Shown here: positions 14,238-32,366 of the stretch, piece after piece
Numbering within the stretch: the stretch's first letter is position 1
Layout: every line of letters begins with the position of its first letter
Source of the DNA: Actinomyces sp.
GTDB lineage: Bacteria > Actinomycetota > Actinomycetes > Actinomycetales > Actinomycetaceae
DNA length: 64,000 nt
Direction of reading: 5' to 3'
Assembly: GCA_022649165.1 (NCBI GenBank)
Contig: JALCNR010000011.1
Location: forward strand, 37,822-101,821
The notes under the pieces: generated by a model
The model's input: the letters and a program-made list of their open reading frames with translations, nothing else
What the model was told of the DNA's origin: nothing
Databases searched by the model: none
Position numbers and translations under genes: made by a program

Positions 14238-14238
14238 T

Positions 14239-15522: not shown

Positions 15523-15534
15523 CCCGACGCATAG

Positions 15535-15570
15535 GATGTCTCCCGGCGGCACGTGCCGCCGGGAGACATC
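15535..15570. repeat. Perfect 36-base palindrome
   Basis: Two 18-bp arms with no loop: GATGTCTCCCGGCGGCAC and its exact reverse complement. It sits between the carrier stop and the tetR start. As RNA it would form a strong terminator-like hairpin; as DNA it is a fully symmetric potential operator for the tetR gene that starts 18 bases later. Confidence 0.7.
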
Positions 15571-15588
15571 TGGGTGTGAAAAGGAAAC

Positions 15589-16182
15589 GTGCTCGTGCGA
15601 CAGCGATGGGACAAGCAGAAGCGACTCGCCCAAATCGTCGACCACGCCACGACACTCATCGGCCGGAGCGGATACCACGGGTTCTCCGTCCAGGAGGTGG
15701 CCGAGAGCTGCGGACTATCGATGGCCGGGCTGCTGCACCACATCGGCTCGAAGGAGAACCTCCTCATCATGGTGCTCCAAGAGAGGGATCGCCGCGACGG
15801 CGAAAACGTTTCTCTGCGCCAACCTCTCCAAGACACGCCTCTCACAGTCGACGACTACGTGGACATGCTCCATGCCGTCGTGGAGCGCAACGCCCTCCAG
15901 CCAGAGATCATCCGCCTCTACACGATCCTCCGTGCGGAGTCGATCGATGAGAACCACCCCGCACATGCCTACTTCGATGAACGCGACCAGATGGCGCTGA
16001 CCATGTTCGAGCAGGCCGCCGCTGGAATCACCCCGGACGCGCGATCCCTGGCCCGCCAGCTCTTGGCCCTCATGGGGGGCTTAGAGGAACAATGGCTGCG
16101 CGAGCAAGACTCCATGGACCTCGTGGCCGAGTGGGACAAAGGGATCCGCGCGCTCCTGCAAGGCCACGGCGTCAGCATCTGA
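15589..16182 (+). CDS. TetR-family regulator of the GH3 operon
   Basis: A 197-residue protein with an N-terminal TetR HTH (IVDHATTLIGRSGYHGFSVQ… SCGLSMAGLLHHIGSKENLL). The helical ligand-binding domain that follows has no strong family signature. GTG start at 15589 with AAGGAAAC just upstream. It is the last gene of the insertion and follows the carrier past the palindrome, so it probably represses the GH3–carrier operon and itself. A glycoside or its aglycone is a plausible inducer. Confidence 0.85.
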   Translation: MLVRQRWDKQKRLAQIVDHATTLIGRSGYHGFSVQEVAESCGLSMAGLLHHIGSKENLLIMVLQERDRRDGENVSLRQPLQDTPLTVDDYVDMLHAVVERNALQPEIIRLYTILRAESIDENHPAHAYFDERDQMALTMFEQAAAGITPDARSLARQLLALMGGLEEQWLREQDSMDLVAEWDKGIRALLQGHGVSI

Positions 16183-16432: not shown

Positions 16433-16729
16433 TCAGCCCTCGCGGAAGACGATGCCCATCGCCGAGGCCGGATAATGCCACGTGAGGGCGCCGGGGGCGG
16501 CGACCGCAAGGCATGTCCCGCATTCGAGGCACGCGGCGTATTCGACGGAGATCGTCCCGTCCGGCTCCTCGCTGTAGACGTGCGCTGGGCACACCTTGAC
16601 CAGCAGCCTGCCGGTGCCGGTGGCGCGGGCGATGTCCTGGTGTACTTCGATGTGGGGGTTGCCCTCGTCGACCTCGTACATGTTGTGCGCGAGGCGGTCG
16701 GGCACGGACCCCGGGGTGTATCGGCTCAT
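16433..16729 (-). CDS. fixX: Ferredoxin-like protein FixX
   Basis: A 98-residue iron–sulfur protein that passes electrons together with FixC. It has the FixX-type cysteine pattern (VCPAHVY, then CLECGTC) and the family ending ALTWHYPASAMGIVFREG. The usual final cysteine cluster is compact, so a 4Fe-4S centre is expected by homology. It begins 14 bases after the fixC stop. The start is the ATG of MSRYTPG. It is the last gene of the fixABCX operon. Confidence 0.88.
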   Translation of the reverse strand: MSRYTPGSVPDRLAHNMYEVDEGNPHIEVHQDIARATGTGRLLVKVCPAHVYSEEPDGTISVEYAACLECGTCLAVAAPGALTWHYPASAMGIVFREG

Positions 16730-16743
16730 CGCATGCTCCTCTC

Positions 16744-18042
16744 TCACAGTGCCCGGATGGCCTGGACGCCGATCCTCACCAAGCGCCGGAGCTTCAGCCC
16801 GGACGCCTTGAGGGCTTCCCTGGCCGTGGCCAGCAGATGCTTGCGCGGGGTGAGGTCCAGGTTGTAGACGCCGTACAGGACGTCGGAGACCAGCGAGCCG
16901 AGCCGTCCGTACATCTCCTCGTTCTCGAGGAAGGCCGGGGCCTTGGCGTAGGTGGCCATATCGGCCCCGACGAAGGAGGCCTCGTAGTTGGTCACGTACC
17001 GCTGCAGACCGGCCCGGGAGACGTCCCCGGCGTCGAGGGCGTCCCCGATCGCCTGGGCGGCGGCCCGGGCGGATCCTGCGGCCAGATCCATCCCGCGTAC
17101 GGTGAAACCCGTGTTGAGAGTGAAGCCCGCGGCGTCGCCGACGACGACCAGCCCGTCGCGCACGAGGTCGTGCTGCATCTCGGCGCCGCCCTCGGCGACC
17201 AGGTGGCATCCGTACTCGAGCAACTCCCCGTCCGCCAGATAGGGCTCGATCGCCGGATGGGTGAGGAAGTGGTCGTGCAGGTCGGAGGCGGCGAGTCCCT
17301 TCGCGGCGAGGTCGTCCAGGCGGGCGACGATCCCGATCGACACGGAATCCCTGTTCGTGTACATGAATCCACCGCCGGCGACCCCCTGGGTGCAGTCGCC
17401 GACCACAGCCCATGCTGCGCCTTGATCGCCCGCCAGGTTGAAGCGCTCCGACACCGTGCCCTCGCCGAGGCGGATGACGGACTTGACGCCGACGGCGAGG
17501 TTCTTCGCAGGTTCCTTCGCCCGGATGCCCGCGTACCGAGAGAGGAAGGAGTTCACCCCGTCCGCGGCCACCGTGACCCGAGCGCGGAGCTCGTCCTCGC
17601 CCGCGCGGATCCCGACGAAACGCCCGTCCTGCTGGAGGAGCTCGTCGACCTTGACTGCGGACATGACGGTGACGCCGGCCTCCTCGCACCGCTCGGAGAG
17701 CCACGGGTCCAGCTTGGCGCGGAGCACCGTGACGGCGTTGACGGGATCCGCCAGCCGCGCGTCCCAGTAGTCGACGTTCACGAAGGAGCTCGGCGACAGG
17801 AAGGACAGGGCGTTGCGGGTGATGCGGCGCTCGACGGGGGCGTTCTGCGCGAATCCCGGGAAGATCTCCTCCATGACCCGGCAGTAGAAGACGCCGCCGG
17901 AGAGGTTCTTCGACCCGGGCTCGGCGCCCCGCTCGACCAGCAGGACCTCCCGGCCCTGCTGGGCGAGCAGGTACGCGCATACGGACCCCGCGACACCGCA
18001 GCCCACGACGATGACGTCGAAGTCGTACTCGATCTCGTCCAT
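16744..18042 (-). CDS. fixC: FAD-dependent oxidoreductase FixC (ETF-quinone-type)
   Basis: A 432-residue flavoprotein of the FixC/ETF-QO family. The N-terminus carries the dinucleotide fold DVIVVGCGVAGSVCAYLLAQ followed by the acidic cap VERGAEPGSKNLSGG. A second conserved segment is GLVVVGDAAGFTLNTGF, and the ETF-QO-like core is AADGVNSFLSRYAG. The protein would accept electrons from FixAB or pass them to the quinone pool together with FixX. The ATG of MDEIEYDFDV at 18042 is chosen because the fold starts right after it. It is tightly spaced with fixB (7 bases) and fixX. Confidence 0.92.
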   Translation of the reverse strand: MDEIEYDFDVIVVGCGVAGSVCAYLLAQQGREVLLVERGAEPGSKNLSGGVFYCRVMEEIFPGFAQNAPVERRITRNALSFLSPSSFVNVDYWDARLADPVNAVTVLRAKLDPWLSERCEEAGVTVMSAVKVDELLQQDGRFVGIRAGEDELRARVTVAADGVNSFLSRYAGIRAKEPAKNLAVGVKSVIRLGEGTVSERFNLAGDQGAAWAVVGDCTQGVAGGGFMYTNRDSVSIGIVARLDDLAAKGLAASDLHDHFLTHPAIEPYLADGELLEYGCHLVAEGGAEMQHDLVRDGLVVVGDAAGFTLNTGFTVRGMDLAAGSARAAAQAIGDALDAGDVSRAGLQRYVTNYEASFVGADMATYAKAPAFLENEEMYGRLGSLVSDVLYGVYNLDLTPRKHLLATAREALKASGLKLRRLVRIGVQAIRAL

Positions 18043-18049
18043 CACCGGC

Positions 18050-18916
18050 TCACTTCGCCGCCGCGACGATCGCCGGCAGCACCTGATAGAGGTCGCCGAC
18101 GATCCCGTAGTCGGCATCCCGGAAGATCGGGGCGTTGCCGTCGGAGTTGACGGCGACGACCACCGTCGACCCGTTCATGCCCATCGTGTGCTGAACCTGG
18201 CCGGAGATCCCGACGGCGACGTACAGGTCGGGGGACACCTTCTGTCCTGAGACCCCGACGTACCGGTCGCGGGGCAGCCAGTTGACGCCCTCGGCCAGCG
18301 GACGCGAGCAGGCGAGCTCGGCTCCCAGCGCGCCGCACAGGTCGCGGGCCAGGGCGAGGTCCTCCTCGGATTTGAATCCGCGTCCCGCCGCCACGATCCG
18401 CTTGGCGGCGACGAGGTCGACCTCGCCGACGTCCTGGCGCTCCGTCGACGTCACCGTCGCGTCGTGGGCCTGCGCATCGGCCGTCTCGGCAGACGGCGCC
18501 TCTCCCCCGGCCGCGGCACCGCCGTCGACGACGGCCACCACCGGACCCGCGAACGAGACGGACTCGCGCGAGACGCCCCCGAAGACGGACACCTCCGCCG
18601 CGCCCTGTGACAGGGACACGACATCGGTGAGCACCGGAGCACCGAGTCTCGCCGCGAGGGCGCCCGCGAGGACGCGCTCCGCCGGGCGGTTCGCCGCCAG
18701 GACCACGTCGCCGGGGCCGGCCGTCACGACGGCCGCGACACCGGGCGCAGCCGCCTCCACGGGCACGCCGTCGGCGACGGGCACGTTGACGACGCGATCG
18801 ACGCCGCCGACCGTGACATCACCGACCGTCACGGCGATGACCTGGCCGCCCAGGCTCCGCGCCAGCTCCACCACAGATGCGACCCGCTTGTCGGCCGCCA
18901 CAATCCATGCAGTCAT
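18050..18916 (-). CDS. fixB: Electron transfer flavoprotein alpha subunit FixB
   Basis: A 288-residue ETF-alpha-type protein. The C-terminal FAD-binding domain is complete: AAKRIVAAGRGFKSEEDLALARDL, YVGVSGQKVSPDLYVAVGISGQVQH and VNSDGNAPIFRDADYGIVGDLY. The N-terminal half is the alpha/beta ETF domain. The start is the ATG of MTAWIV, matching family N-termini; an upstream in-frame start adds six residues with no family support. With FixA it forms the heterodimer that carries electrons to or from acyl-CoA dehydrogenase (here the CaiA homologue). Confidence 0.93.
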   Translation of the reverse strand: MTAWIVAADKRVASVVELARSLGGQVIAVTVGDVTVGGVDRVVNVPVADGVPVEAAAPGVAAVVTAGPGDVVLAANRPAERVLAGALAARLGAPVLTDVVSLSQGAAEVSVFGGVSRESVSFAGPVVAVVDGGAAAGGEAPSAETADAQAHDATVTSTERQDVGEVDLVAAKRIVAAGRGFKSEEDLALARDLCGALGAELACSRPLAEGVNWLPRDRYVGVSGQKVSPDLYVAVGISGQVQHTMGMNGSTVVVAVNSDGNAPIFRDADYGIVGDLYQVLPAIVAAAK

Positions 18917-18934
18917 TGTCGTCTTCCTCTCCAC

Positions 18935-19696
18935 TCACAGAACGCCATCGCCGCGCAGCGCCGACACCAGGTCGGCCGCAGCACTCTCACCGGAGAACAC
19001 CGTGTTCTTCCGGGCGCGGGCCGCCGGCTTGGACCGGCCCGTCACCTCGACGTCGGCCTCGGCCAGGTCGAGCGTGGAGGCGTCCACGACCTCGAACGGC
19101 TTCTTGCCGGCGGCGAGGATCTCCTTCATCGACGGGACCTTCGCCGCCACCGCGTCCGAGGACGCCGCGACGACGACCGGGCCCGCCACCTGGATCGTGC
19201 GGGTGCCCCCGGCGATCACCTGGGTGACGGCCCACCCGTCGCCCGACCGCGCGACGGAGGACACCTCCTGGAAGCACGGCCACCCGAGGAAGCCGGCGAC
19301 CAAGGCGGACATCATCCGGGCGCCCCCGTCGATCGACGAATCGCCGGTGACGACCAGGTCCGCGCCCTCCACGGACCGCACGAGGCCAGCGAGCGCGGAC
19401 GCGACCCTGGTGGAGGGCCATTCCCGCGTCGCGTCGTCGGCCACCGCGAGCCCACGGTCCAGGCCCTTCGACAACGCGGTCTTCTTCGCCATCGACGAGC
19501 CGACCTCGGCCGCGCCGACGGACGCCCCGACGAGCTCGACGCCCGCGGCGCCCGCGATCTGGCGTCCGAGTGCGATCGCGACCGAGTCGTAATCGCTCAC
19601 CGAGGACTTGGCGCGCGACCAGTCGACCGCGCCATCTGGGGCGACGGTGGCATCCTGCGGGTTCGCCGCATACTTGTACAAGACGACAACAGACAT
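18935..19696 (-). CDS. fixA: Electron transfer flavoprotein beta subunit FixA
   Basis: A 253-residue ETF-beta-type protein, starting MSVVVLYKYAANPQDA. It contains the nucleotide-binding core DLVVTGDSSIDGGARMMSALVAGFLGW and the recognition segment PSMKEILAAGKKPFEV, which contacts the partner dehydrogenase. It is first in the fixABCX operon, and the 315 bases upstream are shared with a divergent tetR gene. Whether FixAB bifurcates electrons, as in nitrogen-fixing organisms, or simply supplies CaiA, as in Escherichia coli, cannot be read here. The cai genes favour the latter. Confidence 0.93.
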   Translation of the reverse strand: MSVVVLYKYAANPQDATVAPDGAVDWSRAKSSVSDYDSVAIALGRQIAGAAGVELVGASVGAAEVGSSMAKKTALSKGLDRGLAVADDATREWPSTRVASALAGLVRSVEGADLVVTGDSSIDGGARMMSALVAGFLGWPCFQEVSSVARSGDGWAVTQVIAGGTRTIQVAGPVVVAASSDAVAAKVPSMKEILAAGKKPFEVVDASTLDLAEADVEVTGRSKPAARARKNTVFSGESAAADLVSALRGDGVL

Positions 19697-20010
19697 TGAC
19701 TGCACTCTTTCACTGAGTCGATGGGCAGGGTCTGCCCGGGGGGTGGTGGGTGAGGGACGTGCCCGCGCGCTGTTCGCGAGCGCGCTCGTCCTGCGTCTGG
19801 ACGGCAGGACCGCCGCGCCGAGGCGAAGCGTGATCTCTTGGCGCCGATCCCGCGCAAGGGGGATCGTGCGACGCCGCGGGTGTTAGCATGATGCGGAGTG
19901 AGCTTCCTGTCGGACAACGTAGTTTCGGGGGAACGGCATCTACGGGTCTCTGGCGTGGAAGCGAGCGGAGCCGATCGCCTCTCGTCGCCATCCGCAAAGG
20001 AGCCCGAAGA
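19697..20010. promoter_or_regulatory. Divergent regulatory region fixA / tetR
   Basis: About 314 bases with no gene. A short inverted repeat GGGCAG-GGT-CTGCCC (19723–19737) lies 27 bases upstream of the fixA start, and GCGCGC…GCGCGC arms occur near 19770. Either could be an operator of the adjacent TetR. I could not define a convincing promoter for either direction. Confidence 0.4.
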
Positions 20011-20658
20011 ATGCTGACAACCGTGTCCCCGATTGACAGTCCCCCGGTGGGGCGCCCGCGCAGCGAGGACGCTGATGCGAGAATCCTGCTCGCCGCCATC
20101 GAGCTGTACGGAGAAGCCGGATGGTCGGGGTACAACCTCACAAAGGTCACCCAGCTCGCCGGCGTCGGGAAGTCCTCGATGTATGCCCGCTGGAGCGACA
20201 AGAGCCAACTCCTCCAGGACGCGTTCCGCGTCCACGTGCCGGTGCCGGCACCCACCGGGACGAATGTCTGGGACATCCTCTCCGAGTGGGCGGCGGCCCG
20301 CGTCAAGATGTATCTGGGACCCCACTCGCAGGCGATCCGTCGCGTCTTCGTCGAGATGTCGACGGGCGAGCCCACGATCACCACGCTCCAGGACTACCTC
20401 TACACGATGCCGATCGCCGTGCTCCGCTCCCGGATCTGGGAGTTCAAGACGAACGGCTACCTGCCGGTGACGACCTCCGTCACCCGGCTGATCGACGGGA
20501 TCGAGGGTTCTGTGCTCATGCGCAGCTTCTCGATCCCCCCGGAGAATGTGCCATGCTTCCTCTCGGAGATCCCCGAGTACGTCGAGACGCTCGTCGCCGA
20601 TCAGCTCCGCGCACCGCTGCGAGCGAGCGAGATCCGTCTGGCCCGCATCGCCTCCTGA
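20011..20658 (+). CDS. TetR-family regulator between fix and cai operons
   Basis: A 215-residue protein whose HTH (ILLAAIELYGEAGWSGYNLT… LAGVGKSSMYARWSDKSQLL) is typical of TetR. Start ATG at 20011 is preceded by AAGGAGCCCGAAGA, a strong ribosome site that decides against upstream starts. It lies between the fixABCX operon and the cai-like operon, both transcribed away on the other strand, so control of one or both is the simplest reading. The ligand may be a CoA thioester or the free substrate; this is inference. Confidence 0.85.
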   Translation: MLTTVSPIDSPPVGRPRSEDADARILLAAIELYGEAGWSGYNLTKVTQLAGVGKSSMYARWSDKSQLLQDAFRVHVPVPAPTGTNVWDILSEWAAARVKMYLGPHSQAIRRVFVEMSTGEPTITTLQDYLYTMPIAVLRSRIWEFKTNGYLPVTTSVTRLIDGIEGSVLMRSFSIPPENVPCFLSEIPEYVETLVADQLRAPLRASEIRLARIAS

Positions 20659-20659
20659 G

Positions 20660-20686
20660 CCGGCCGTCCCGCAAGAGGACGGCCGG
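20660..20686. terminator. Bidirectional hairpin between convergent tetR and MFS genes
   Basis: 9-bp arms CCGGCCGTC / GACGGCCGG with a 9-base loop, immediately after the tetR stop and before the end of the MFS gene on the other strand. It probably terminates both. Confidence 0.55.
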
Positions 20687-20733
20687 GGGCAGGAAAGGCG
20701 TCCCGGTCGGGCGAGATCGGCTGAGGTCATCGC

Positions 20734-22056
20734 TCACCGCCCCGTGAAATCCGGACGGCCGGTCTCGGACAGCGGCAGCCCCTTGGTCTCCGGCGCCCAT
20801 GCGACCGACACGACCAGGCCGAGGGCCGAGATGGCGGCGCCGACGAGCATCGTGGAGCCGATCCCGTGGCTCGCCAGGTAGTCCGGCAGCACGTAGGTGG
20901 TGATGACCGTCCCGATGCGGGACACGGCCATCGCCAGGCCCATCGCCGTGGCGCGAACGTCGGTGGGGAACAGCTCGTTCGGGTAGAGCCACTGCAAGTT
21001 CCCCGGCCCGCCCGAGGCGAGGGCGTAGATCGCGAAGCAGGCGATGACGACCCACAGGGTGGCGTCGGGGACGACCCCCAGGACGGCCAGCGCGGCCGTC
21101 ATGATGACGAACGTCCAGATCACCAGCGGGCGCCGGCCCCACGACTCGGCGAGGAACATAGCGGGGATCGTGCCGAGCATGAAGAACGTTCCGATGACGA
21201 GTTCGCCGATCAGCGCCGCCTTGCCCTCGCCCAGACCGAAGGCGCCGATGATCCGCGGGCCGTAGGTGTAGATCGCGAACATCGGGATCGCCTGGCAGAG
21301 CCAGATGACGCCCACGAAAAGGATCCGGCGGAAGTACACCCACTGGAAGATCTTGGCGATCTTCGTCTTCTCGACCGTCTCATCGTCGAGGACCACGTCG
21401 GCGCCGTAGACGTGGCGAACGATCCGGTTGGCCTCCTCCGTGCGCCCCTTGGAGTACAGCCAGCGTGGGGACTCGGGAATCGACATCCGTCCGAGGAGGA
21501 TGATCACGCAGGGGACGACGGAGCTCGCGAGCATCCACCGCCAGCCGTTCGGCGCGTCGAGCAGGAAGTACCCCACCAGATAGGCGACGTTGGCGCCGAC
21601 GTACCAGACGGCGGCGATGAAGCCCATCGAGATCGCGCGGTACCGGCGCGGCGTGAACTCCGCGATCATCGAGGTCGCGATCGGATAGTCGGCGCCGATC
21701 GTCGCCCCGATGATAAGTCGGAGGACGAACAGCTGCCAGGGCTCCTGGACGATCGAGCAGGCGATCGACAAGACGATGATCGTGATGAGATCGAGCACGA
21801 ACATCTTCCGCCGCCCGATGTGGTCCGTGAGGAGACCGCCGAACGAGGCCCCGACGAACAGCCCGATGATCGACGCCACGCCGATGAGGCCGGTCCAGTG
21901 CTCGTCGATGCCGAGTTCCGGGGTCATCTTGACCAGCGCGACGCCGATGATGCCCAGCACGTACCCCTCGAGGAATGGGCCTCCCGAGGAAAAGATCGTG
22001 ATTCTCCTGAGGAACGGCGACATCCTGACGTCGTCGAGTCTGACAGGTCCGCTCAT
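20734..22056 (-). CDS. MFS transporter (sugar-porter/aromatic-acid type), last gene of cai-like operon
   Basis: A 440-residue 12-segment carrier. It shows the MFS motif GGLLTDHIGRRKMF between segments 2 and 3 and PESPRWLYSKGR after segment 6, the hallmark of the sugar-porter and related acid-symporter families. The ATG of MSGPVRL has GGAAGGAGGG upstream. In enterobacteria the carnitine exchanger CaiT is a BCCT-family protein; this operon has MFS proteins at both ends instead. It would import the substrate acid or exchange it for the product. Substrate unknown. Confidence 0.85.
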   Translation of the reverse strand: MSGPVRLDDVRMSPFLRRITIFSSGGPFLEGYVLGIIGVALVKMTPELGIDEHWTGLIGVASIIGLFVGASFGGLLTDHIGRRKMFVLDLITIIVLSIACSIVQEPWQLFVLRLIIGATIGADYPIATSMIAEFTPRRYRAISMGFIAAVWYVGANVAYLVGYFLLDAPNGWRWMLASSVVPCVIILLGRMSIPESPRWLYSKGRTEEANRIVRHVYGADVVLDDETVEKTKIAKIFQWVYFRRILFVGVIWLCQAIPMFAIYTYGPRIIGAFGLGEGKAALIGELVIGTFFMLGTIPAMFLAESWGRRPLVIWTFVIMTAALAVLGVVPDATLWVVIACFAIYALASGGPGNLQWLYPNELFPTDVRATAMGLAMAVSRIGTVITTYVLPDYLASHGIGSTMLVGAAISALGLVVSVAWAPETKGLPLSETGRPDFTGR

Positions 22057-22186
22057 GGCGGCCCTCCTTCCGTTGCAAGCGCGCGGAGTGCGCATCCCCG
22101 CCTCCGGACGACCGGGGGTGGGGTCGGCGCCGCCGGGATGGGGCGCCGACCGGTCCGGCCGTCGGCGGTTGAGACCTCCTGCGGGA

Positions 22187-23062
22187 TCACCGGTACTCGA
22201 TGACGCCCCAGTTGAGGTGCGGCTTGGCGCCGGTCTCCTCGTAGTCCCCGTCGACGAGACGGAAGCGGAGCTCGCCCTCGTCGACCTTCCACATCTGGGT
22301 CTTCAACGTCTCTCCGGGATGGACCGGCGAGGTGATCCTCGTCTTGAACCGCGTGATCCGCTCCGGCTCGCCGGGAACGTATTGGCTGATCGCGTGGCGC
22401 ATCACCATGCCGGCGTAGGAGATCGCGTGGAGGATCGGGCGCGGTTCGCCGTTCTGAGCGGCGTACTCCCAGTCGATGTGCTGCGGATGGAAGTCCCCGG
22501 ACAGCCGGTAGATGAGCGCCTGGTTCTCCGGGATGCGCTCGATCACCTCGGCGTCGGGAACGCGGTCGGGCATGTCGACGATGTCCTTCGGGGGCTTCGG
22601 ACCGCCCCAGCCGCCGTCGTAGATCAGGCAGTCCCACGACTCGTTGGTGAACAGCAGATTGCCGTCGGAGTCGAAGGTGTCGCCGATGTGCTGGGCGAGC
22701 AGGCCCTTGCCCTCGCCGCGGTCGTAGAGGCCCTCCAGCTTCACCTTCGTCTCGAGGTGGTCCGCCATCTTCGTGATCGGCTGGTGGAACCGGATGTCGA
22801 AGCCCCAGTGCAGAGAGCCGGCGTAGTTGTAGCCGTAGTCGATGGTCCGGGTCACCTCGGAGTCGACGATGAGCATCGCGCCGAACATCGGCAGCACCTT
22901 GAGCCGGGGATCGCGCTCGTCATGCTCGTTGAGGTACTCCAGTCCTTCCCTGCCGTCGATGCCCGCGCCGCAGCCCAGAGCGAAGAGCTCGAGGTCGCGG
23001 AACGTGTAGTCGCGGGTGAACGGCCCGAAGGTCTGTCCCACCATCTCGGTCTTGATCGTCAT
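22187..23062 (-). CDS. MaoC-fold enoyl-CoA hydratase/dehydratase (double hotdog)
   Basis: A 291-residue double-hotdog protein. The C-terminal half carries the hydratase-2 motif YRLSGDFHPQHIDWEYAA with the catalytic Asp/His pair, followed by PILHAISYAG. The N-terminal half (residues 1–130) is the non-catalytic hotdog, with YNYAGSLHWGFDIRFHQPI. It would add or remove water across the 2,3-bond of an acyl-CoA. Its position after caiC suggests that it does the job that CaiD, a crotonase-fold enzyme, does in enterobacterial carnitine metabolism. The 22-base gap to caiC indicates cotranscription. Confidence 0.85.
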   Translation of the reverse strand: MTIKTEMVGQTFGPFTRDYTFRDLELFALGCGAGIDGREGLEYLNEHDERDPRLKVLPMFGAMLIVDSEVTRTIDYGYNYAGSLHWGFDIRFHQPITKMADHLETKVKLEGLYDRGEGKGLLAQHIGDTFDSDGNLLFTNESWDCLIYDGGWGGPKPPKDIVDMPDRVPDAEVIERIPENQALIYRLSGDFHPQHIDWEYAAQNGEPRPILHAISYAGMVMRHAISQYVPGEPERITRFKTRITSPVHPGETLKTQMWKVDEGELRFRLVDGDYEETGAKPHLNWGVIEYR

Positions 23063-23084
23063 GATCGTTCCTTTCAGATCTCCG

Positions 23085-24647
23085 TCAATCCTTCAAGAGG
23101 TTCTTGATTACTTTTCCGTAGGTTCCCCGGGGCAAGTCGTCCCGCACCTCGATGACACTGGGCACCTTGAAGTAGGCGAGGCGGGCCGCCGCGAACGCCC
23201 GCACCTGCGCCTGCGTCACCGGCGCATCCCGGTCGAGGACCACGACGGCTTTGACCGCCTGGTCCCGGACGGGATCCGGGATGCCGACGACAGCCGCCTC
23301 GGCGACGCCGGGACACTCCATGAGGACGTTCTCCACCTGTGTGGCGGAGACGTTCTCGCCGGCGCGCTTGATGAGGTCCTGGTGTCGGTCGACGAAGTGG
23401 ATCCAGCCCTCCGCGTCGGCGTATCCCAGGTCCCCGCTGTGGTACCAGCCGTCGGGGTCCACAGCGGCGGCCGTCGCCTCGGGGTCCTTCCAGTAGCCGA
23501 GCATGAGCGACCGGCCCGGGACGCCGTGGATGAGGATCTCACCGCATCCTCCGACCGGGGCGTCCCCCGACTCGTCGACGATCCGGACCTCGTAGCCGAG
23601 ACCAGCCTTGCCGACCGACGGCCAGTGCCGTGGCTGCAGCGGGAGGTCCGTCAGGCACCCCACCAGGGTCTCCGTCGCCCCGTAGTTGTTAAGAAGAGTA
23701 ACGGAGAATCGCTCCTCGAATGCTTCCTTCTCCCCGTCCGAGAGCGGCAAGAAGTAGTGGAGGTCGCGGACGCGGTGCCGACGCTCGTCCGGATCGACCG
23801 GCTGGCTCATCATCGTCCGCACCATCATCGCCATCGACTGGACGAGGGTGGCGCCGTGGGCGCGGATCTCGCGCCAGAACCGCGTGGCGGAGTACCGCCC
23901 CAGCATGACCAGCGTGGCCCCGGCCGTGAGGACCGGCATGAGGGCCGAGAGCTGGAAGTTCACGTGGGAGGTCACCATCGCCGTGGCCAGGCGGTCCTCT
24001 GGCGTCATCCCCATCTCCCAGTTGCAGTAGAGCCCGGAGAACACGAAGTTCGCGTGGGTGAGCATGACGCCCTTCGGGCGCGACTCCGTCCCCGAGGTGA
24101 ACATGATCTCCACCAGGTCGTCCTCGTAGACGGGGTCGCACGGTCCGAGCACGGGGGACGCCACTGCCACCAACGAGGCCCAGTCGTCGCGCCAGCAGTC
24201 GCCGGCCGACCGGACCGGCCGCCCGCCCCCGTCCGCGACGACGATGACGTCGCAACTGATGGCCTCCATCCCCTCCTGAGCGAACAGCTCACTGTCGGAC
24301 ACGAGCAGGCGGACCCCGCATTGCTCCGTCATCTCCAGGCACTCACGGGCCGTGTACGAGGAGTTCAGCGGGACCGTGACCGCGCCGATCTTCGCCAGGG
24401 CGAAGAGGCACTGGACGAACTCGCAGGAGGAATGCGTCTGGACGGCCACACGGTCGCCGTGGCCGATCCCGCGGGCGAGGAACACGTTCGCCGCCCGATT
24501 GATCGACTCGTCGAACTCACGGTAGGTGAAGCGCCGGACCGGCCCTTGGTCGGGGTCCTCGAAGACGAGGAACTCAGCGTCCGACCACTCGCGCGCCTGC
24601 TGATCCCACAGGCTGCGCAGGGTGACTCCACTCGCGATGTCCATCAT
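23085..24647 (-). CDS. caiC: CaiC-like acyl-CoA ligase (crotonobetaine/carnitine--CoA ligase family)
   Basis: A 520-residue ANL-superfamily ligase, about the length of enterobacterial CaiC. Visible are the phosphate loop MFTSGTESRPKGVMLTHANF, the segment LLNNYGATETLVG, the ATP-binding GWYHSGDLGYADAEGWIHF, and the hinge DRHQDLIKRAGENVSATQVE. The catalytic Lys is in GTYGKVIKNLL near the end. The short phosphate loop variant (TSGTES rather than TSGTTG) is the one seen in CaiC. It would activate the substrate acid with ATP and CoA to prime the CaiB cycle. Two adjacent ATGs are possible starts. Confidence 0.85.
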   Translation of the reverse strand: MMDIASGVTLRSLWDQQAREWSDAEFLVFEDPDQGPVRRFTYREFDESINRAANVFLARGIGHGDRVAVQTHSSCEFVQCLFALAKIGAVTVPLNSSYTARECLEMTEQCGVRLLVSDSELFAQEGMEAISCDVIVVADGGGRPVRSAGDCWRDDWASLVAVASPVLGPCDPVYEDDLVEIMFTSGTESRPKGVMLTHANFVFSGLYCNWEMGMTPEDRLATAMVTSHVNFQLSALMPVLTAGATLVMLGRYSATRFWREIRAHGATLVQSMAMMVRTMMSQPVDPDERRHRVRDLHYFLPLSDGEKEAFEERFSVTLLNNYGATETLVGCLTDLPLQPRHWPSVGKAGLGYEVRIVDESGDAPVGGCGEILIHGVPGRSLMLGYWKDPEATAAAVDPDGWYHSGDLGYADAEGWIHFVDRHQDLIKRAGENVSATQVENVLMECPGVAEAAVVGIPDPVRDQAVKAVVVLDRDAPVTQAQVRAFAAARLAYFKVPSVIEVRDDLPRGTYGKVIKNLLKD

Positions 24648-24695
24648 GCCGGCCCCGATCCCGGCGGCCTGGCCGCCTGAGTCGATGAGTCCGTC

Positions 24696-25916
24696 TCACT
24701 CCTCTCCAGCGAACTTCACGGACCCGGACGCGCGGAACCGGGCGATGTCCTCGGATGTGAACCCGACGCGCTCGAGGACGTCCTCGGAGTCCTCGCCGAG
24801 CGCGGGCATCGGACGCCAGAAGCCACCGGGGTTGTGGGCGAACTTCGGGAAGGAGTTGAGCCCCCTGATGGTCTTGCCCTCGGCGTTCTCCCACTCGATG
24901 TAGGTCTCGCGCTGTTTGAGGTGGTCCTCCTTGGGGAGATCCGACAGCTCGTTGACCACCTGAGCGGCGATCCGATGGGCGACGAAGTCCGCCTCGACGT
25001 CTCTCTTGTTGCGCGTGGAGAGATACTCGACGAGCTTCTCCTCGATCAGGTCGGCCTTCGGGCCGTCCATCCACAGGGCGGACGTCCCCTCCGGGTAGTC
25101 CTCGGTGCCCCAGAGGTCGCCGAGGCCGATGACGTCGAGCAGGTAGTGGTTCTGGTTGACGCCGTAGACGCACAGCCCGAGGAACCCGTCCCGGCACTTG
25201 TACTCGCCGATCGCGCACAGGTTCATCGCGCGGGCGCCGGGCCTCGGGTAGAGGATCCCCGCGTTGAGATAGTCCATCATGTAGTAGGTCCCCACCCTCA
25301 AGAGGGTCTCGTGCATCGCGAGGTCGATGCTCTCCCCTTGGCCCGTGAGCTGCACCCGGTGGAGCGCTGCGAGCGAGGCGGAGATGATCATCATCGAGTT
25401 GAGGTAGTCGCCCAGGTAAGGGTTGATGTTCATCGGCTGGTCGGGGGTGCCGTTCTGCGCGATGATGCCGGCGTAGGCCGCCACGCTGAGGTCGTAGGCC
25501 GCGGCGTTGACCATCTTCGGGTCGCCCCACTGGCCGAACCCGGAGACGTGGACGATGACGAGTCCCGGGTTGTGCTTCCACAGTTCCTCGTCGGTGACGC
25601 CCTTGCGGGCGAACGTGCCGCCCTTGGAGGCCTCGATGAAGATGTCCGCGCTCTCGACGAGGCGGTAGAGGATCTCCTTGCCCTCGTCGGAGAACGTCGC
25701 CATGGACAGGGAGCGCATGTTGCGGCGCTCCATCTCCTTCGTCCACGCGGTGTCGCGCATCGAGTCGCCAGTGCCGTTGTTCTCCAGCCAGGTGACGTCG
25801 GCGCCCCACTCGGCCATGATCGCGCAGGCCGAGGGCGCGGCGATCTCGACGGCCGAGTAGACGATGCGCACGTCATCCAGCACCCCGAAGTGGGGCTTGT
25901 TCTTCTCGATCGACAT
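24696..25916 (-). CDS. caiB: CaiB-like CoA-transferase (family III)
   Basis: A 406-residue family III CoA-transferase that would swap CoA between the product thioester and the incoming substrate. The catalytic Asp is at about residue 170 in NPYLGDYLNS, matching Asp169 of Escherichia coli CaiB. The order of conserved segments follows CaiB closely: FGVLDDVRIVYSAVEIAAP, MAEWGADVTWLEN, TDIFIEASKG-like DIFIEASKGGTFARKG, LVIVHVSGFGQWG, GQGESIDLAMHE. The C-terminus ends KGLNSFPKFAHNPGG-like and VGFTSEDI. Recognition against CaiB is from memory of that sequence. The gap to caiA is 18 bases. Confidence 0.88.
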   Translation of the reverse strand: MSIEKNKPHFGVLDDVRIVYSAVEIAAPSACAIMAEWGADVTWLENNGTGDSMRDTAWTKEMERRNMRSLSMATFSDEGKEILYRLVESADIFIEASKGGTFARKGVTDEELWKHNPGLVIVHVSGFGQWGDPKMVNAAAYDLSVAAYAGIIAQNGTPDQPMNINPYLGDYLNSMMIISASLAALHRVQLTGQGESIDLAMHETLLRVGTYYMMDYLNAGILYPRPGARAMNLCAIGEYKCRDGFLGLCVYGVNQNHYLLDVIGLGDLWGTEDYPEGTSALWMDGPKADLIEEKLVEYLSTRNKRDVEADFVAHRIAAQVVNELSDLPKEDHLKQRETYIEWENAEGKTIRGLNSFPKFAHNPGGFWRPMPALGEDSEDVLERVGFTSEDIARFRASGSVKFAGEE

Positions 25917-25934
25917 CGATCTTCCTTCTTCCTC

Positions 25935-27068
25935 TCAGCGGTAGTCCCGCAGCGCGCCGCGACCGGCCGCCAGGATCATCATTTCGTCGGTCCCCCCGGA
26001 CACGCGGTCCACTCGCAGGTCGCGATAGAAGCGCTGGACACGGTGCTCGCCGGCGATTCCCACCCCGGCGAGGACCTGGAGGGCGTTGTCGACGACCAGG
26101 TGCGCGGCGTGCGAGCAGTAGTACTTCGCCATCGAGCAGTCTCCGCGGCCGGTCGTGCCGTGGTCCATCTTCCAGGCGATCTCGTAGAGCATGTTGCGCA
26201 TGTTGGTGAGCGCCACCTTCATGTCGGCGAACTTCAGCTGGATCAGCTGGTGACGTGCGATCGCCTGACCGCCCTGGACGCGTTGGTTCGCGTACCTGGC
26301 GGCGTCCTCGAAGGCGCAGTAGGCCGTGCCGTAGTTCGTGAGCGCGACGAGGAACCGCTCGTCGTCGAAGTCCTTGACCCCGCGCTTGAAGGCGTTGCCC
26401 TCGGTGCCCCAGAGGTCCTTCTCCTGCAGCTCGACGTCGTCGAAGTAGACCTCCGCGCAGGAGTCCATGCGCAGGCCCAGTTTGTGGAGGGGCTCCTTGG
26501 CGATGCCCGGAAGACTAGTGTCTACAAACCATTCGGAGTAGACGCTCATGTCATCCGCGTTCCGGGCCATGACCACCAGGTAGGGGACCTTCATGGCGGA
26601 TGTCTGGAACGTCTTGTGCCCATTGAGGTAGACCTTGCCGTCCCGGCGGGTGTACGTCGTGCGCATGTCGTCCCATGAAGATCCGGCCGAGGGCTCGGTC
26701 ATCGAGTAGTTGAGGATCTGGTCGCCGGTGCCGACGTGGGCCAGGATCTTGTCTCGCTGCTCGTCCGTTCCCTCGCGGATGACGCTGTTGTACCCGGGCA
26801 GCTGGTAGAGGACGTACGTCGGGCCGCCGGCCCGTCCGAGCGCCTCGTAGGCGGCGGTCAGCGTGACCCAGTCGAGCCCGAGCCCGTCGTACTCCTCCGG
26901 CAGGAGGATCCGGTCGAATCCGAGTTCGCAGATCGCAGCCACCCACTCCTGCGGGTACTCCGACTTCTCATCGCACTCGTGGAAGTACGACTCCCAGTCG
27001 CGCGACTCCATGAGCTCGGTGAATCCGTTGGCGATCAGCTGCTGATCCTCGGAAAGCGAGAAATCCAT
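25935..27068 (-). CDS. caiA: CaiA-like acyl-CoA dehydrogenase (crotonobetainyl-CoA reductase family)
   Basis: A 377-residue flavin-dependent acyl-CoA dehydrogenase, nearly the length of enterobacterial CaiA (about 380). It shares unusually long stretches with that enzyme: [64 protein letters not shown] and [15 protein letters not shown]. Acyl-CoA dehydrogenases of this type run as reductases when coupled to FixAB. It would reduce the enoyl-CoA made by the hydratase. It is preceded by the esterase gene after a 33-base gap. The flavin-contacting segment [13 protein letters not shown] is intact. Confidence 0.9.
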
Positions 27069-27101
27069 GTGTACTCCTTCAGGTCAGTGATGAGAGGTGT
27101 G

Positions 27102-28121
27102 TCAGGGAAGCGGCACCTGGCCGGCCGTCGCCCGGGTCCCCGACGACGGCCGAGCCAGGGCGCGATGGAATACCGAGGCGTGGTCGAGGACCTGCACCGT
27201 CGCGTCGAGCATCCGGGAGTGGTGGAGGAACCCGTGGATGACGCCCGGGACCTCCTCGTAGTGCGTGGGCGTCCCGTGGGCGCTCAGCATCGCGGCGAGC
27301 GTCCTCGAGTCGTCGCGGAGCGGATCCAGCGCCGCCGCGACGATGAAGCACGGCGGGACGTCGCGCGTGAGGTCGGCGCCCAGGATGTTGAAGTAGGGGC
27401 TCTCGGTGTCGGAGTCCGAGCCCTTGTACATGTCCATGTAGTACGCGTAGTCGGCCTCGTCCAGGCCGTCCCACTCGCCGCCGAACAAGCGCATCGACTC
27501 CGAGTCGACCATCCCGTAGGCCCCGTAGAACAGCAGCATCGCACGGACGCCCGCGGCCTCCCCCAGCTCGTCGCGCAGCCAGAGGTAGGTGGCGAAGCTG
27601 AGGTTCGCGCCACCGGAGTCCCCTGCGAAGGAGATGTCGCCCGCGTCGACGCCCCACTGGGCGGCGTGGGCGCGTAACTCCTGCACGACGGCCACGCATT
27701 CGCGCACCGCCTGCGGGAACCGGGCCTCCGGCGAGAGGGTGTAGTCCACCGCGAGCACCGCGGCGCCCGTCTTCTCCGCCAGCGTCCGGATGATCCGATC
27801 GTGGGTGTCCAGGTTGCCTAGGACGTACCCGCCGCCGTGGATGAACACGATGACGGGCAGGACCGGATCGGCCGTGGGCCGGTGCATCCGCACCCGGACC
27901 GGTCCATAGTCCGTCGTCACGTTGTCCTCACGGGTGGAGTACGGGCGGGGGCCGCCCTCGTTCCAGAATGCGCGCTCCGTGTTGTAAGCCGCCCGCATCT
28001 CCTCGAATGTCTGGTCCGTGGAGTACGCATTGGCCGCAAGCGCGTTCTGCTGGGCGATGACGGCACCCATCTGGGCGCTCCACATCTGCGGGACGTTCAG
28101 CTTGTTCGGCACTGTCGTCAC
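27102..28121 (-). CDS. Alpha/beta hydrolase, HSL-type esterase
   Basis: A 339-residue esterase of the hormone-sensitive-lipase family. The oxyanion motif is FIHGGGYVLG, the catalytic Ser is in FAGDSGGANLS, the Asp is in ALDPLRDD and the His in VIHGFLHH. The GTG start overlaps the MFS stop by four bases (GTGA), so it is translationally coupled to that carrier. Within the cai-like operon it may cleave an ester such as an O-acyl-carnitine to give the free acid that CaiC/CaiB would then activate. That role is inference; no signal peptide is seen, so it works inside the cell. Confidence 0.85.
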   Translation of the reverse strand: MTTVPNKLNVPQMWSAQMGAVIAQQNALAANAYSTDQTFEEMRAAYNTERAFWNEGGPRPYSTREDNVTTDYGPVRVRMHRPTADPVLPVIVFIHGGGYVLGNLDTHDRIIRTLAEKTGAAVLAVDYTLSPEARFPQAVRECVAVVQELRAHAAQWGVDAGDISFAGDSGGANLSFATYLWLRDELGEAAGVRAMLLFYGAYGMVDSESMRLFGGEWDGLDEADYAYYMDMYKGSDSDTESPYFNILGADLTRDVPPCFIVAAALDPLRDDSRTLAAMLSAHGTPTHYEEVPGVIHGFLHHSRMLDATVQVLDHASVFHRALARPSSGTRATAGQVPLP

Positions 28122-29449
28122 TCGGCCCTCGCGTCCGCCGCGGCGAGTTCCGCGGCCGCAGCCGCCTCGGCCGCCTTCAGCTTCGCGGCGTTCCTGCGCA
28201 CGTAGGCGAGCAGGATGATCGCGAAGACGGCGGAGATGACGGCGGCCCCGGCCAGGATCAGGAAGATCGGGCGATACGCGTCGTTGCCCTGGCTGTCGAT
28301 CATCGATCCGAACCACGTGGAGGAGAAGGTGTCGGGCAGGAAGCCGATGACGGAGAGGATGCCGGTCGCCGTCCCGAAGATCGTGATCGGCACCCGTCCC
28401 TCCGTCAGCTGGGACGAGACGATGCCGAAGACGCCGTTGGCGATGAACCCCAGCGCGATGATGATGACGGCCGCGAGGATCGCCACCGAGGACTTGCTCG
28501 GGAGCAGCGTCATCCCGACCAGGGCGAGCGCCGCGACGACCGAGCCGATCCAGATGACCTGGGACGGCGAGCCCGCCTTGCGCGCGAGGAAGCCGAAAGC
28601 CGGCCCGGACAGCAGCGTGATGCCGTAGGTGCGGATGACGGACACGAGGGAGACGATGCCCAGCGAGGCGCCCAGGACGCCCGACAGGTACGGCGTCGTG
28701 TAGGTGACGCCCGTGTAGTAGAAGTAGACGAAGAACATGCAGGCGGCGGACAGCCAGACCACGGGGTTCTTCACGACCTGCCCGAGCTCCTTGAGGTTGA
28801 ACCCGGCCTCGCCGGTGTCGATCTCGCCCTCGAAGCGCGGGATGAAGAGGAAGGAGAGGATGCCCAGGAGCAGGATCAGGCTGCCGAGGAAGATCAGGAG
28901 GGTGCGCACGCCGCCCTCCATGTTGTCGACGAAGGCGTTGACGATCCACATGTTGATGAGGCCGACGACCAGGCCGGCGGCGCCGTAGATGCCGTAGGAG
29001 ACGCCGATGTTCTTCGAGTACTCGTCCTCGGTGGAGATCAGACGGACCAGCTTGAAGCGGATGCCCCACCAGATGAGAATCGTCGTGATGCCCATGCCGA
29101 TGAACACGAACATCAGCGTGGTGATCGAGGGAAGCAGCGCGTAGACGTAGGTGAGGACGGCCGTGGTGGTGAAGCCCACCCAGCCGAGCGTTCGGACGCG
29201 CACCTTGTCTGCCACGATGCCCGACGGCAGGTAGCAGATCGTCGCCGTGATGGCGTAGGCCGACAACAGCATGCCGAGGTCGGCGTTGGTGCAGTGGAGC
29301 GCCCCCATGAGCGGGTCGTAGAAGACGCCTTTGAGATACGCGGGCGCGTAGATGGTGGAACTTCCCATCGAGACGAGGATGAGGAGGAAGATTCGGCGGC
29401 CGCCGGTGAGATCGGTGGCCCGAACTTCCTTCCGGAGTTTCTCAAGCAT
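28118..29449 (-). CDS. MFS transporter, first gene of cai-like operon
   Basis: A 443-residue membrane carrier with about 12 segments. The N-terminal cytoplasmic loop motif is PSGIVADKVRVRTLGWVG, and the protein ends in an Ala/Glu/Lys-rich helix of about 30 residues (LKAAEAAAAAELAAADA), which could be coiled coil. The ATG of MLEKLRKEV is chosen; upstream sequence in the same frame is low-complexity and lies in the regulatory region. It heads a seven-gene operon (MFS, esterase, caiA, caiB, caiC, maoC, MFS). Two carriers of different MFS subfamilies in one operon suggest separate import and export roles. Confidence 0.83.
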   Translation of the reverse strand: MLEKLRKEVRATDLTGGRRIFLLILVSMGSSTIYAPAYLKGVFYDPLMGALHCTNADLGMLLSAYAITATICYLPSGIVADKVRVRTLGWVGFTTTAVLTYVYALLPSITTLMFVFIGMGITTILIWWGIRFKLVRLISTEDEYSKNIGVSYGIYGAAGLVVGLINMWIVNAFVDNMEGGVRTLLIFLGSLILLLGILSFLFIPRFEGEIDTGEAGFNLKELGQVVKNPVVWLSAACMFFVYFYYTGVTYTTPYLSGVLGASLGIVSLVSVIRTYGITLLSGPAFGFLARKAGSPSQVIWIGSVVAALALVGMTLLPSKSSVAILAAVIIIALGFIANGVFGIVSSQLTEGRVPITIFGTATGILSVIGFLPDTFSSTWFGSMIDSQGNDAYRPIFLILAGAAVISAVFAIILLAYVRRNAAKLKAAEAAAAAELAAADARAE

Positions 29450-29976: not shown

Positions 29977-30606
29977 TCAGGACGCCGTGCCTGCCTCGGC
30001 CGACGCCCGCTCGCCCACCGTCGAGTCGGCGAGCACCCGGGCGAGCGTGGCCCGCGTGCGCTCGATCAGCTCCGGCATCGTCCCGGAGCTGTCGCGCGTG
30101 GCGAAGCCGGCGAAGCGGACGACGCCCGCCAGGAGGTGAGTCACCATCATCGCCTCGTCCTCGCGGCTCTCCGGGGGGACCTCCGGATGCTCGTGCTCGA
30201 GCCGGAGTCCGATGATCTCCCGGAGTTCGCTCTCGATCGCGCCCATCCGCTCCATCTGCTTCGCCATTAGCGAGGGCGAAAGCGCCGCGATGCGGATCCG
30301 GTCGTCGACCGTGGGCGCCCCGGCACTGGCGTGCGGGAGCGAGACCAGGGACAGGGCGTCGAGCAGCAGGGGCCCGTCGGACAGGATGAACCGACGGGCG
30401 GCGCGTTCGTCCACGCGCGGCATCTCCCGGCCGAGGAGCGCATCGTCCTTCGTCGGGAAGTAGTTGAAGAACGTGCGCTGGCTGATGCCCGCCGCCTGGG
30501 CGATCATGTCCACGGTGACCTGGTCGTATCCGTGCTCCACCACGAGGTCCATCGCCGCTCTCTCGACCGCGGCCACCGTGGCCCCACGCCCCTTCGCCTG
30601 CGTCAT
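29977..30606 (-). CDS. TetR-family regulator of the DHA2 exporter
   Basis: A 209-residue TetR protein with HTH VERAAMDLVVEHGYDQVTVD… AAGISQRTFFNYFPTKDDAL. The FFNYFPTKDDAL ending of the recognition helix is typical of regulators of MFS drug exporters. Start ATG (MTQAKGRG) has GGAAGGGAACGGG upstream. It is divergent from the DHA2 exporter, and two matching palindromes lie in between. It most likely represses the exporter and itself until a toxic ligand binds. Confidence 0.88.
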   Translation of the reverse strand: MTQAKGRGATVAAVERAAMDLVVEHGYDQVTVDMIAQAAGISQRTFFNYFPTKDDALLGREMPRVDERAARRFILSDGPLLLDALSLVSLPHASAGAPTVDDRIRIAALSPSLMAKQMERMGAIESELREIIGLRLEHEHPEVPPESREDEAMMVTHLLAGVVRFAGFATRDSSGTMPELIERTRATLARVLADSTVGERASAEAGTAS

Positions 30607-30669
30607 TGCCCGTTCCCTTCCTCGGCTTCGGCTGCGACTTCTCGAGATCGTAGGCGTCGCGACCATATT

Positions 30670-32366
<1,697 letters not shown>

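What the first reader, a model, noticed from the sequence alone, without database searches (positions are those of the whole stretch)
16433..29449. Carnitine-type CoA reduction cluster with a MaoC hydratase in the place of CaiD
caiA, caiB and caiC homologues and a complete fixABCX set lie together in an actinobacterium. In enterobacteria the same set handles carnitine to gamma-butyrobetaine, with a crotonase-fold CaiD and a BCCT exchanger CaiT. Here a double-hotdog MaoC protein and two MFS carriers take those places, and an esterase is added. CaiA and CaiB share long stretches with the known enzymes, so the chemistry (CoA charging, alpha/beta hydration, FixAB-linked reduction) is likely kept, but the stereochemistry of hydration or the substrate may differ. 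The substrate could be carnitine, an O-acyl-carnitine or another beta-hydroxy acid.
Basis: partly seen in the sequence, partly recalled or inferred. Interest (0 to 1): 0.75.

Follow-up and report, generated by a model that had tools for sequence, protein, structure and literature searches.

The report
Carnitine cluster with swapped hydratase fold
An actinobacterium carries most of the carnitine-reducing gene set known from E. coli, but with a MaoC-type protein of a different fold in the slot of the hydratase CaiD; this protein likely does the same water-adding and water-removing step, so screens that require the E. coli genes would miss such bacteria.

Summary
Twelve genes at 16433-29449 encode clear CaiA and CaiB homologues, a CaiC-like ligase, FixABCX-like proteins, two MFS carriers, an Aes-type esterase, a TetR regulator and a MaoC double-hotdog hydratase. 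The genome held (96% complete) shows one crotonase, MenB, and no CaiD. The pairing recurs. Anchored on CaiB, 39 of 39 clusters of the window's family have MaoC. In the family of Enterobacillus tribolii, 44 of 44 other clusters have CaiD, while E. tribolii itself (found through MaoC) has MaoC in the CaiD slot of an otherwise enterobacterial operon. In Coriobacteriia 24 of 29 clusters have MaoC and 20 of 29 a crotonase nearby (15 both). MaoC is very probably the crotonobetainyl-CoA hydratase. Open question: MaoC hydratases are reported to be consistently 3R, and that arrangement is (S)-, i.e. D-, carnitinyl-CoA. Either this subfamily (motif Asn changed to His) has switched face or it serves D-carnitine. 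CaiB and CaiC follow the hydratase type; the CaiT/CaiA/Fix backbone does not. Substrate and stereochemistry are untested.

The parts
28118..29449 (-). MFS1, MFS carrier; predicted carnitine / gamma-butyrobetaine carrier in place of CaiT
   Evidence: Weak 2A0104 MFS match only, no PDB relative at E 0.001. Of 76 MaoC-type loci with CaiA and CaiB (some genomes twice, many chosen by MaoC) 70 have MFS1, 5 CaiT, none both, 1 neither; 29 of 29 Coriobacteriia clusters have it; 0 of 44 CaiD-type loci. Function inferred.
27102..28121 (-). Aes-type acetyl esterase; predicted to release carnitine from O-acylcarnitines
   Evidence: NF007547 413 bits against cut-off 389; 45% to E. coli Aes; PDB acetyl esterases 3ga7, 4krx. 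Substrate inferred from context only.
25935..27068 (-). CaiA homologue, crotonobetainyl-CoA reductase
   Evidence: NF002885 705 bits against 540; 61% to E. coli CaiA, 42.5% to YdiO. The YEG Glu of solved acyl-CoA dehydrogenases is Gly here, as in E. coli-type CaiA.
24696..25916 (-). CaiB homologue, CoA-transferase family III
   Evidence: NF002914 647 bits against 413; best PDB relatives are the CaiB structures 1xk6, 1xa3, 1xvu.
23085..24644 (-). CaiC-like AMP-forming CoA ligase
   Evidence: Best NCBIfam hit is crotonobetaine/carnitine-CoA ligase, 605 bits, below cut-off 651; 39% to E. coli CaiC.
22187..23062 (-). MaoC double-hotdog hydratase, predicted crotonobetainyl-CoA hydratase
   Evidence: PF01575 and PF22622 above cut-offs; AlphaFold model, mean pLDDT 83.1, matches hydratase 2 structures 3khp, 1s9c.
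22460..22510 (-). altered hydratase 2 motif, residues 185-201 YRLSGDFHPQHIDWEYA (catalytic Asp190 and His195 kept, Asn to His192, Leu to Gln194, Pro to Trp198)
   Evidence: consensus YRLSGDxNxLHIDPxxA from PMC3823801 (passages).
20734..22095 (-). MFS2, homologue of E. coli YaaU
   Evidence: 54% over 435 aa to YaaU, which follows fixX in E. coli.
20011..20658 (+). TetR-family regulator (open frame from 19888), likely local regulator in place of CaiF
   Evidence: Weak AcrR match; a relative lies in 29 of the 33 family loci L176-L208.
18935..19705 (-). FixA homologue, electron transfer flavoprotein subunit
18050..18916 (-). FixB homologue, electron transfer flavoprotein subunit
16744..18042 (-). 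FixC homologue, FAD-dependent oxidoreductase
   Evidence: about as close to YdiS.
16433..16729 (-). FixX homologue, ferredoxin-like protein

Best explanation
The cluster likely reduces carnitine to gamma-butyrobetaine as in E. coli, with the MaoC-type protein predicted to interconvert carnitinyl-CoA and crotonobetainyl-CoA in the place of CaiD. Shown: the gene content, the family assignments of CaiA, CaiB and MaoC, the lack of CaiD in the genome held, and the recurrence of the arrangement. Inferred: MFS1 would bring in carnitine, or carnitine would be freed from O-acylcarnitine by the esterase; CaiC and CaiB would charge and recycle CoA; MaoC would dehydrate carnitinyl-CoA using Asp190 and His195; CaiA would reduce crotonobetainyl-CoA with electrons from FixABCX. 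The substrate is more likely host L-carnitine than D-carnitine. If it is L, this MaoC subfamily must have switched the face of hydration relative to known MaoC hydratases, and the conserved Asn-to-His change in its motif is a candidate cause.
For: Family scores. The only crotonase hit in the genome is MenB. CaiB-anchored survey (cut-off 413 bits): the window's family 39 of 39 clusters MaoC, the window's own among them, no crotonase in the stretches; the family of Enterobacillus 44 of 44 other clusters CaiD and no MaoC; Coriobacteriia 29 clusters: 15 MaoC plus crotonase, 9 MaoC only, 5 crotonase only. In Enterobacillus tribolii, which the MaoC scan brought in, MaoC sits where CaiD sits in an operon whose CaiT (79-89%) and CaiA (85-88%) are enterobacterial. 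Of 41 loci of the MaoC scan, 36 show CaiA and CaiB beside it; the other 5 are contigs under 7 kb that show other cluster genes. GDxHxQHxDW in 113 of 120 listed homologues. Shared Glu-to-Gly change of CaiA.
Against: No activity was measured. CaiC falls below its curated cut-off; FixC and FixA are no closer to FixC and FixA than to YdiS and YdiQ. Known MaoC hydratases are consistently 3R (PMC11321319, passage), which for carnitine means the D form. No CaiT or CaiE in the cluster.
Confidence: 0.77

Rival explanations
1. Same pathway, mirror-image substrate: the MaoC cassette (CaiB, CaiC, MaoC) serves D-carnitine, because the hotdog hydratase keeps its family's facial selectivity. This is a sub-case of the best explanation that differs only in the enantiomer.
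For: MaoC hydratases are described as consistently R (PMC11321319, passage), and the 3R arrangement of a 3-hydroxyacyl-CoA is the S arrangement of carnitinyl-CoA, i.e. D-carnitine (that L-carnitine is R is recalled). CaiB and CaiC, which see the chiral centre, follow the hydratase type: CaiD types one clade at 97/100 for CaiB and 100/100 for CaiC. The concatenated CaiT, CaiA, FixA, FixC, FixX backbone rejects that grouping, p-AU 0.0175. Both folds near each other in 15 of 29 Coriobacteriia clusters would fit a division by enantiomer.
Against: L-carnitine is the common natural form (recalled), and 39 of 200 genomes of the window's family would then hold a pathway for a rare compound. CaiA alone does not reject the CaiD types as one clade (p-AU 0.235). 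The motif is altered at three positions, so the face may have changed. In the two Endozoicomonas loci caiB and caiC were exchanged while the main MaoC gene stayed. CaiT would also see the chiral centre, yet it stays with the backbone.
Confidence: 0.25
2. The cluster serves a different, related beta-hydroxy acid and not carnitine.
For: CaiC is below its cut-off and diverges fast; CaiT is absent; MFS carriers and an esterase are added.
Against: CaiA and CaiB are above the curated cut-offs, the same MaoC subfamily occurs with CaiT at 69-79% identity to E. coli CaiT in Endozoicomonas and Enterobacillus, and a YaaU homologue and a FixABCX set are kept.
Confidence: 0.12
3. MaoC is not the pathway hydratase but an accessory enzyme, and hydration is done by another protein or skipped (crotonobetaine is the true substrate).
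For: Co-occurrence with a crotonase in 15 of 29 Coriobacteriia clusters; 3 of the 5 genomes without MaoC in the cluster have none at all, 2 have one elsewhere.
Against: The own genome has no crotonase hit other than MenB; catalytic Asp and His are conserved; MaoC lies in the CaiD slot. The three genomes without MaoC have a crotonase beside the cluster.
Confidence: 0.07

Closest known systems
caiTABCDE plus fixABCX of Escherichia coli
   Same: CaiA (61%), CaiB (42%), CaiC (39%), FixABCX (31-44%) and YaaU (54%) homologues together
   Different: MaoC double-hotdog for crotonase-fold CaiD; MFS1 for the BCCT exchanger CaiT; TetR for CaiF; no CaiE; esterase in the operon
Hydratase 2 / MaoC family (3khp, human MFE-2 domain 1s9c)
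   Same: Fold (TM 0.82-0.86 for the four best chains), Pfam domains, catalytic Asp and His
   Different: Motif Asn, Leu and Pro replaced by His, Gln and Trp; 28-32% identity to those four chains
Gamma-butyrobetaine to trimethylamine (bbu) cluster of Emergencia timonensis (PMC8364193, two passages seen)
   Same: Related compounds, anaerobic
   Different: Acts downstream on gamma-butyrobetaine; the words MaoC and caiD do not occur in the main text held

Membership tests
cai carnitine-reduction cluster | CaiA above curated cut-off | tested here: met
   705 against 540 bits
cai carnitine-reduction cluster | CaiB above curated cut-off | tested here: met
   647 against 413 bits
cai carnitine-reduction cluster | CaiC above curated cut-off | tested here: not met
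   605 against 651 bits, though the best hit of all
cai carnitine-reduction cluster | CaiD crotonase hydratase | tested here: not met
   Only crotonase hit in the genome is MenB
cai carnitine-reduction cluster | CaiT BCCT exchanger | tested here: not met
   None in the window; the genome's one BCCT scores 199 against 541 for CaiT
cai carnitine-reduction cluster | CaiE | tested here: not met
   No tblastn hit in the window; genome not searched for it
cai carnitine-reduction cluster | FixABCX in synteny | tested here: met
   Four genes in order beside the cai genes; individual curated cut-offs not reached
cai carnitine-reduction cluster | Reduction of carnitine or crotonobetaine | not testable with these tools
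   Needs enzyme assays
MaoC / hydratase 2 | Pfam MaoC and MFE-2 hydratase N-terminal domains | tested here: met
   66.2 against 27 and 32.7 against 27 bits
MaoC / hydratase 2 | Catalytic Asp and His of the hydratase 2 motif | tested here: met
   Asp190, His195 (motif)
MaoC / hydratase 2 | Full consensus motif YRLSGDxNxLHIDP | tested here: not met
   His, Gln and Trp in place of Asn, Leu and Pro
MaoC / hydratase 2 | 3R-specific hydration | not testable with these tools
   Needs chiral product analysis

The most novel reading that the evidence does not exclude
MaoC-type cai clusters form a mirror-image carnitine pathway: a swappable CaiB-CaiC-hydratase cassette sets the enantiomer, crotonase fold for L-carnitine and hotdog fold for D-carnitine, on a constant CaiT/CaiA/Fix backbone, and clusters with both folds use both enantiomers. 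The alternative, no less striking, is the first MaoC hydratases with reversed facial selectivity.
Probability: 0.25. Interest if true: 0.85.

Novelty: new variant of a known kind. Interest (0 to 1): 0.62.

Why it matters
Carnitine to gamma-butyrobetaine is the first step of the anaerobic route to trimethylamine. One published screen accepts only genomes that hold all six caiTABCDE genes (PMC11857547, passages), so it would leave out MaoC-type clusters such as those found here in the window's family (39 of 200 genomes), in Coriobacteriia (24 of 276 genomes) and, through the MaoC scan, in Propionibacteriaceae, Bacillaceae and others. Several public records also call this protein a bile-acid-type trihydroxycholestenoyl-CoA hydratase, which the gene context contradicts. 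And one reaction done by two folds that are known for opposite facial selectivity makes a clean, testable question about stereochemistry.

Tried and rejected
Rejected: strict mutual exclusion of CaiD and MaoC, a view I held after the first two families; Coriobacteriia have both folds in 15 of 29 clusters and Ferrimonas kyonanensis probably both. Rejected: a CaiC-MaoC fusion (P0065); the letters look like a frameshifted metagenome frame. Rejected: MFS2 as a CaiT substitute; it is a YaaU homologue. Rejected: the crotonases of Coriobacteriia as CaiD orthologues; six of the 20 were tested and none lists the CaiD family at E 1e-60, while E. coli CaiD scores 563 against 500. Weak: CaiA alone as proof of an operon-internal swap in Enterobacillus; p-AU 0.235, only the concatenated backbone reaches 0.0175, and the CaiT tree has low support there. 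Not done: four of the five crotonases of Enterobacillus were not compared with CaiD; only the one on the cluster's contig was (32%). Led nowhere: sampling the order of Enterobacillus (2 of 345), the order of Schinkia (1 of 249) and Gammaproteobacteria (1 of 369), in each of which the centre itself was a hit; no Ferrimonas context could be fetched. Paper searches found no paper, 63 found three off the subject by title and abstract, 100 listed 15 of 422, none on the subject by title; most subscription papers are not held, so this is no proof that the swap is unpublished.
Full report
What is there. On the minus strand at 29449-16433 run MFS1, an esterase, CaiA, CaiB, a CaiC-like ligase, a MaoC protein, MFS2, and then FixA, FixB, FixC and FixX, with a TetR gene on the plus strand between MFS2 and fixA. 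CaiA scores 705 bits against a curated cut-off of 540, CaiB 647 against 413. CaiC has the crotonobetaine/carnitine ligase as its best family, but at 605 against 651 it does not reach the cut-off. The esterase is above the Aes cut-off, 413 against 389. Against E. coli the identities are CaiA 61%, CaiB 42%, CaiC 39%, FixA 31%, FixB 44%, FixC 41%, FixX 42%, MFS2 to YaaU 54% and esterase to Aes 45%. Against the reading: the Fix proteins stay below their cut-offs, and FixC and FixA score slightly higher with the paralogues YdiS and YdiQ (337 against 309 and 102 against 95 bits). CaiA is 42.5% identical to YdiO, and YdiO with two similar rows forms a separate branch in the tree. In the aligned solved acyl-CoA dehydrogenases the motif reads YEGT; the window has SGGT. 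SGG was found in 42 of 42 MaoC-type CaiA rows and 21 of 23 CaiD-type rows, the other two not matching the pattern. That the YEG Glu is the catalytic base is recalled.

The hydratase. The MaoC protein carries PF01575 and PF22622 above cut-off. Its AlphaFold model (mean pLDDT 83.1, pTM 0.85, 47 sequences) is closest to 3khp and to the hydratase 2 domain of human MFE-2, 1s9c (TM 0.82-0.86 for the four best chains). The published hydratase 2 motif is YRLSGDxNxLHIDPxxA, with Asp and His catalytic (PMC3823801, passages). The window reads YRLSGDFHPQHIDWEYA. His192, His195 and Trp198 are invariant and Asp190 nearly so in a 47-row alignment chosen from the 120 listed homologues; GDxHxQHxDW is in 113 of those 120 (534 were found, 120 listed); GDWHQQHID is in 24 of 24 Coriobacteriia MaoC rows. 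The genome (2.80 Mb, 33 contigs, 96% complete) has one crotonase (two pieces of one frame), and it is MenB, 522 bits against 378, next to MenE- and MenA-type genes. So the genome held shows no CaiD and no other crotonase.

Is the pairing real? A MaoC-based scan of genome contigs gave 41 loci; 36 show CaiA and CaiB beside MaoC, and the other 5 are contigs under 7 kb that show other cluster genes. That scan starts from MaoC and is biased, so I anchored on CaiB (NF002914, cut-off 413) instead. Family names here follow the named loci; the genomes themselves are unnamed. The window's own family (Actinomycetaceae): 39 of 200 genomes over the cut-off, the window's among them; all 39 clusters have MaoC and no relative of CaiD at E 1e-8 in the fetched stretch. 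Many of these are the same species as in the MaoC scan. The wider order: 7 of 248 over the cut-off, six of them in this family and the seventh, G212, also with MaoC. The family of Enterobacillus tribolii, which includes E. coli-like genomes: 45 of 295; 44 have CaiD and no MaoC; the forty-fifth is Enterobacillus, the centre of the search, which had been found through MaoC, with MaoC and no CaiD in the cluster. The crotonase on its cluster's contig is 32% identical to CaiD and lies about 28 kb away; its four other crotonases were not compared with CaiD. Coriobacteriia: 29 of 276; 15 have MaoC and a crotonase, 9 MaoC only (some stretches end early), 5 a crotonase only. Of these five genomes, three have no MaoC anywhere and two have one elsewhere, at 55-56% identity. 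The 20 Coriobacteriia crotonases are 39-41% identical to CaiD; the six tested do not list the CaiD family at E 1e-60, and the eight printed rows keep the two Glu columns of CaiD (that these are the catalytic ones is recalled). They are mostly transcribed against the cluster, not inside it. So a crotonase fold and a hotdog fold have met at this locus more than once. None of the fetched clusters over the cut-off lacked both.

History. With YdiO and its kin as outgroup, the CaiA tree roots between the actinobacterial MaoC types (with one Dormiibacterota row) and the rest, so that MaoC is the likelier ancestral state in this sample and CaiD a later arrival; this is an inference from 65 labelled rows, the outgroup branch is long and the branch of the 36 rows has support 95/59 only. 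The label needs two changes on the CaiA tree but one on the CaiB (97/100) and CaiC (100/100) trees. The difference lies in Enterobacillus: against five CaiD-type clusters its CaiT is 79-89% and CaiA 85-88% identical, its CaiB only 62-63% and CaiC 51-54%. CaiA alone does not reject the CaiD types as one clade (p-AU 0.235); CaiT, CaiA, FixA, FixC and FixX together do (p-AU 0.0175). In two Endozoicomonas loci the DNA is 92% identical before, as far as the start of caiB, and 97% after a block of caiB and caiC that is only about 70% alike. CaiB and CaiC thus seem to move apart from the CaiT/CaiA/Fix backbone, in Enterobacillus together with the MaoC gene. In Endozoicomonas the main MaoC gene did not move, and the block in E. 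elysicola carries a second MaoC copy that has lost the catalytic Asp.

How it would work. By analogy with E. coli: uptake, CoA charging by CaiC, CoA cycling by CaiB, dehydration of carnitinyl-CoA to crotonobetainyl-CoA, reduction by CaiA with electrons from FixABCX, export of gamma-butyrobetaine. The roles of CaiT, CaiA, CaiB, CaiC and CaiD in E. coli are described in PMC2131755 (passages). In this cluster the dehydration falls to MaoC. MFS1 was never found with CaiT: 70 MFS1, 5 CaiT, 0 both, 1 neither of 76 loci with CaiA and CaiB (these include the MaoC-selected loci and some genomes twice); 29 of 29 Coriobacteriia have MFS1, 0 of 44 CaiD-type loci. It is the candidate exchanger. The esterase is in 70 of the 76 and in 26 of 29 Coriobacteriia clusters, and beside 3 of 44 CaiD-type clusters; release of carnitine from O-acylcarnitine is the simplest role but is inferred.

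The stereochemical problem. A recent paper calls the stereospecificity of other MaoC hydratases consistent and places the 3-hydroxyl in R (PMC11321319, passage). A label computation shows that the arrangement called 3R in a 3-hydroxyacyl-CoA is called S in carnitinyl-CoA. L-carnitine is R (recalled). So a MaoC hydratase that keeps its family's face would make or consume D-carnitine; one that serves L-carnitine must have changed face. I judge L more likely for ecological reasons, at about two to one or better, and hold the D reading at 0.25.

Novelty. Searches for crotonobetainyl-CoA with MaoC (0 papers), cai genes with Actinomyces (0) and butyrobetaine with Actinomycetaceae (3, off the subject by title and abstract) found no report; the library lacks most subscription journals. 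The published gamma-butyrobetaine database requires all six caiTABCDE genes in one genome (passages). The pathway is known; the fold swap at the hydratase step is a new variant of it.

Noticed in passing
12057-16182: GH3-type glycoside hydrolase, an MFS carrier and a TetR regulator in a row next to the cluster (no family cut-off reached for the hydrolase).
   Followed up: no
29977-32366: TetR regulator divergent from a DHA2-type multidrug efflux carrier above the EmrB-subfamily cut-off (288 against 230 bits).
   Followed up: no
33106-34878: MBL-fold hydrolase and an SDR oxidoreductase on opposite strands.
   Followed up: no
L039 9108-9959: Endozoicomonas elysicola carries a second MaoC copy in tandem whose motif reads GIYHHLHADW, the catalytic Asp being lost.
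   Followed up: partly
L039 13001-14599: A sodium-solute-symporter-like frame lies between fixB and fixC (name from reading, no family search).
   Followed up: no
L209, L210: Two genomes of the window's family hold another cluster with two CaiB-like genes in tandem (36-38%), a CaiC-like and a crotonase gene; CaiB below the cut-off.
   Followed up: no
   Followed up: no
one search hits P0006, P0022, P0029, P0045, P0098: Public names call these members of the MaoC subfamily a trihydroxycholestenoyl-CoA hydratase, which the cai context of the subfamily contradicts.
   Followed up: partly
P0120 and P0129: Ferrimonas kyonanensis seems to hold MaoC and CaiD on one contig of 402,964 bases (lengths match); context not seen.
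   Followed up: partly
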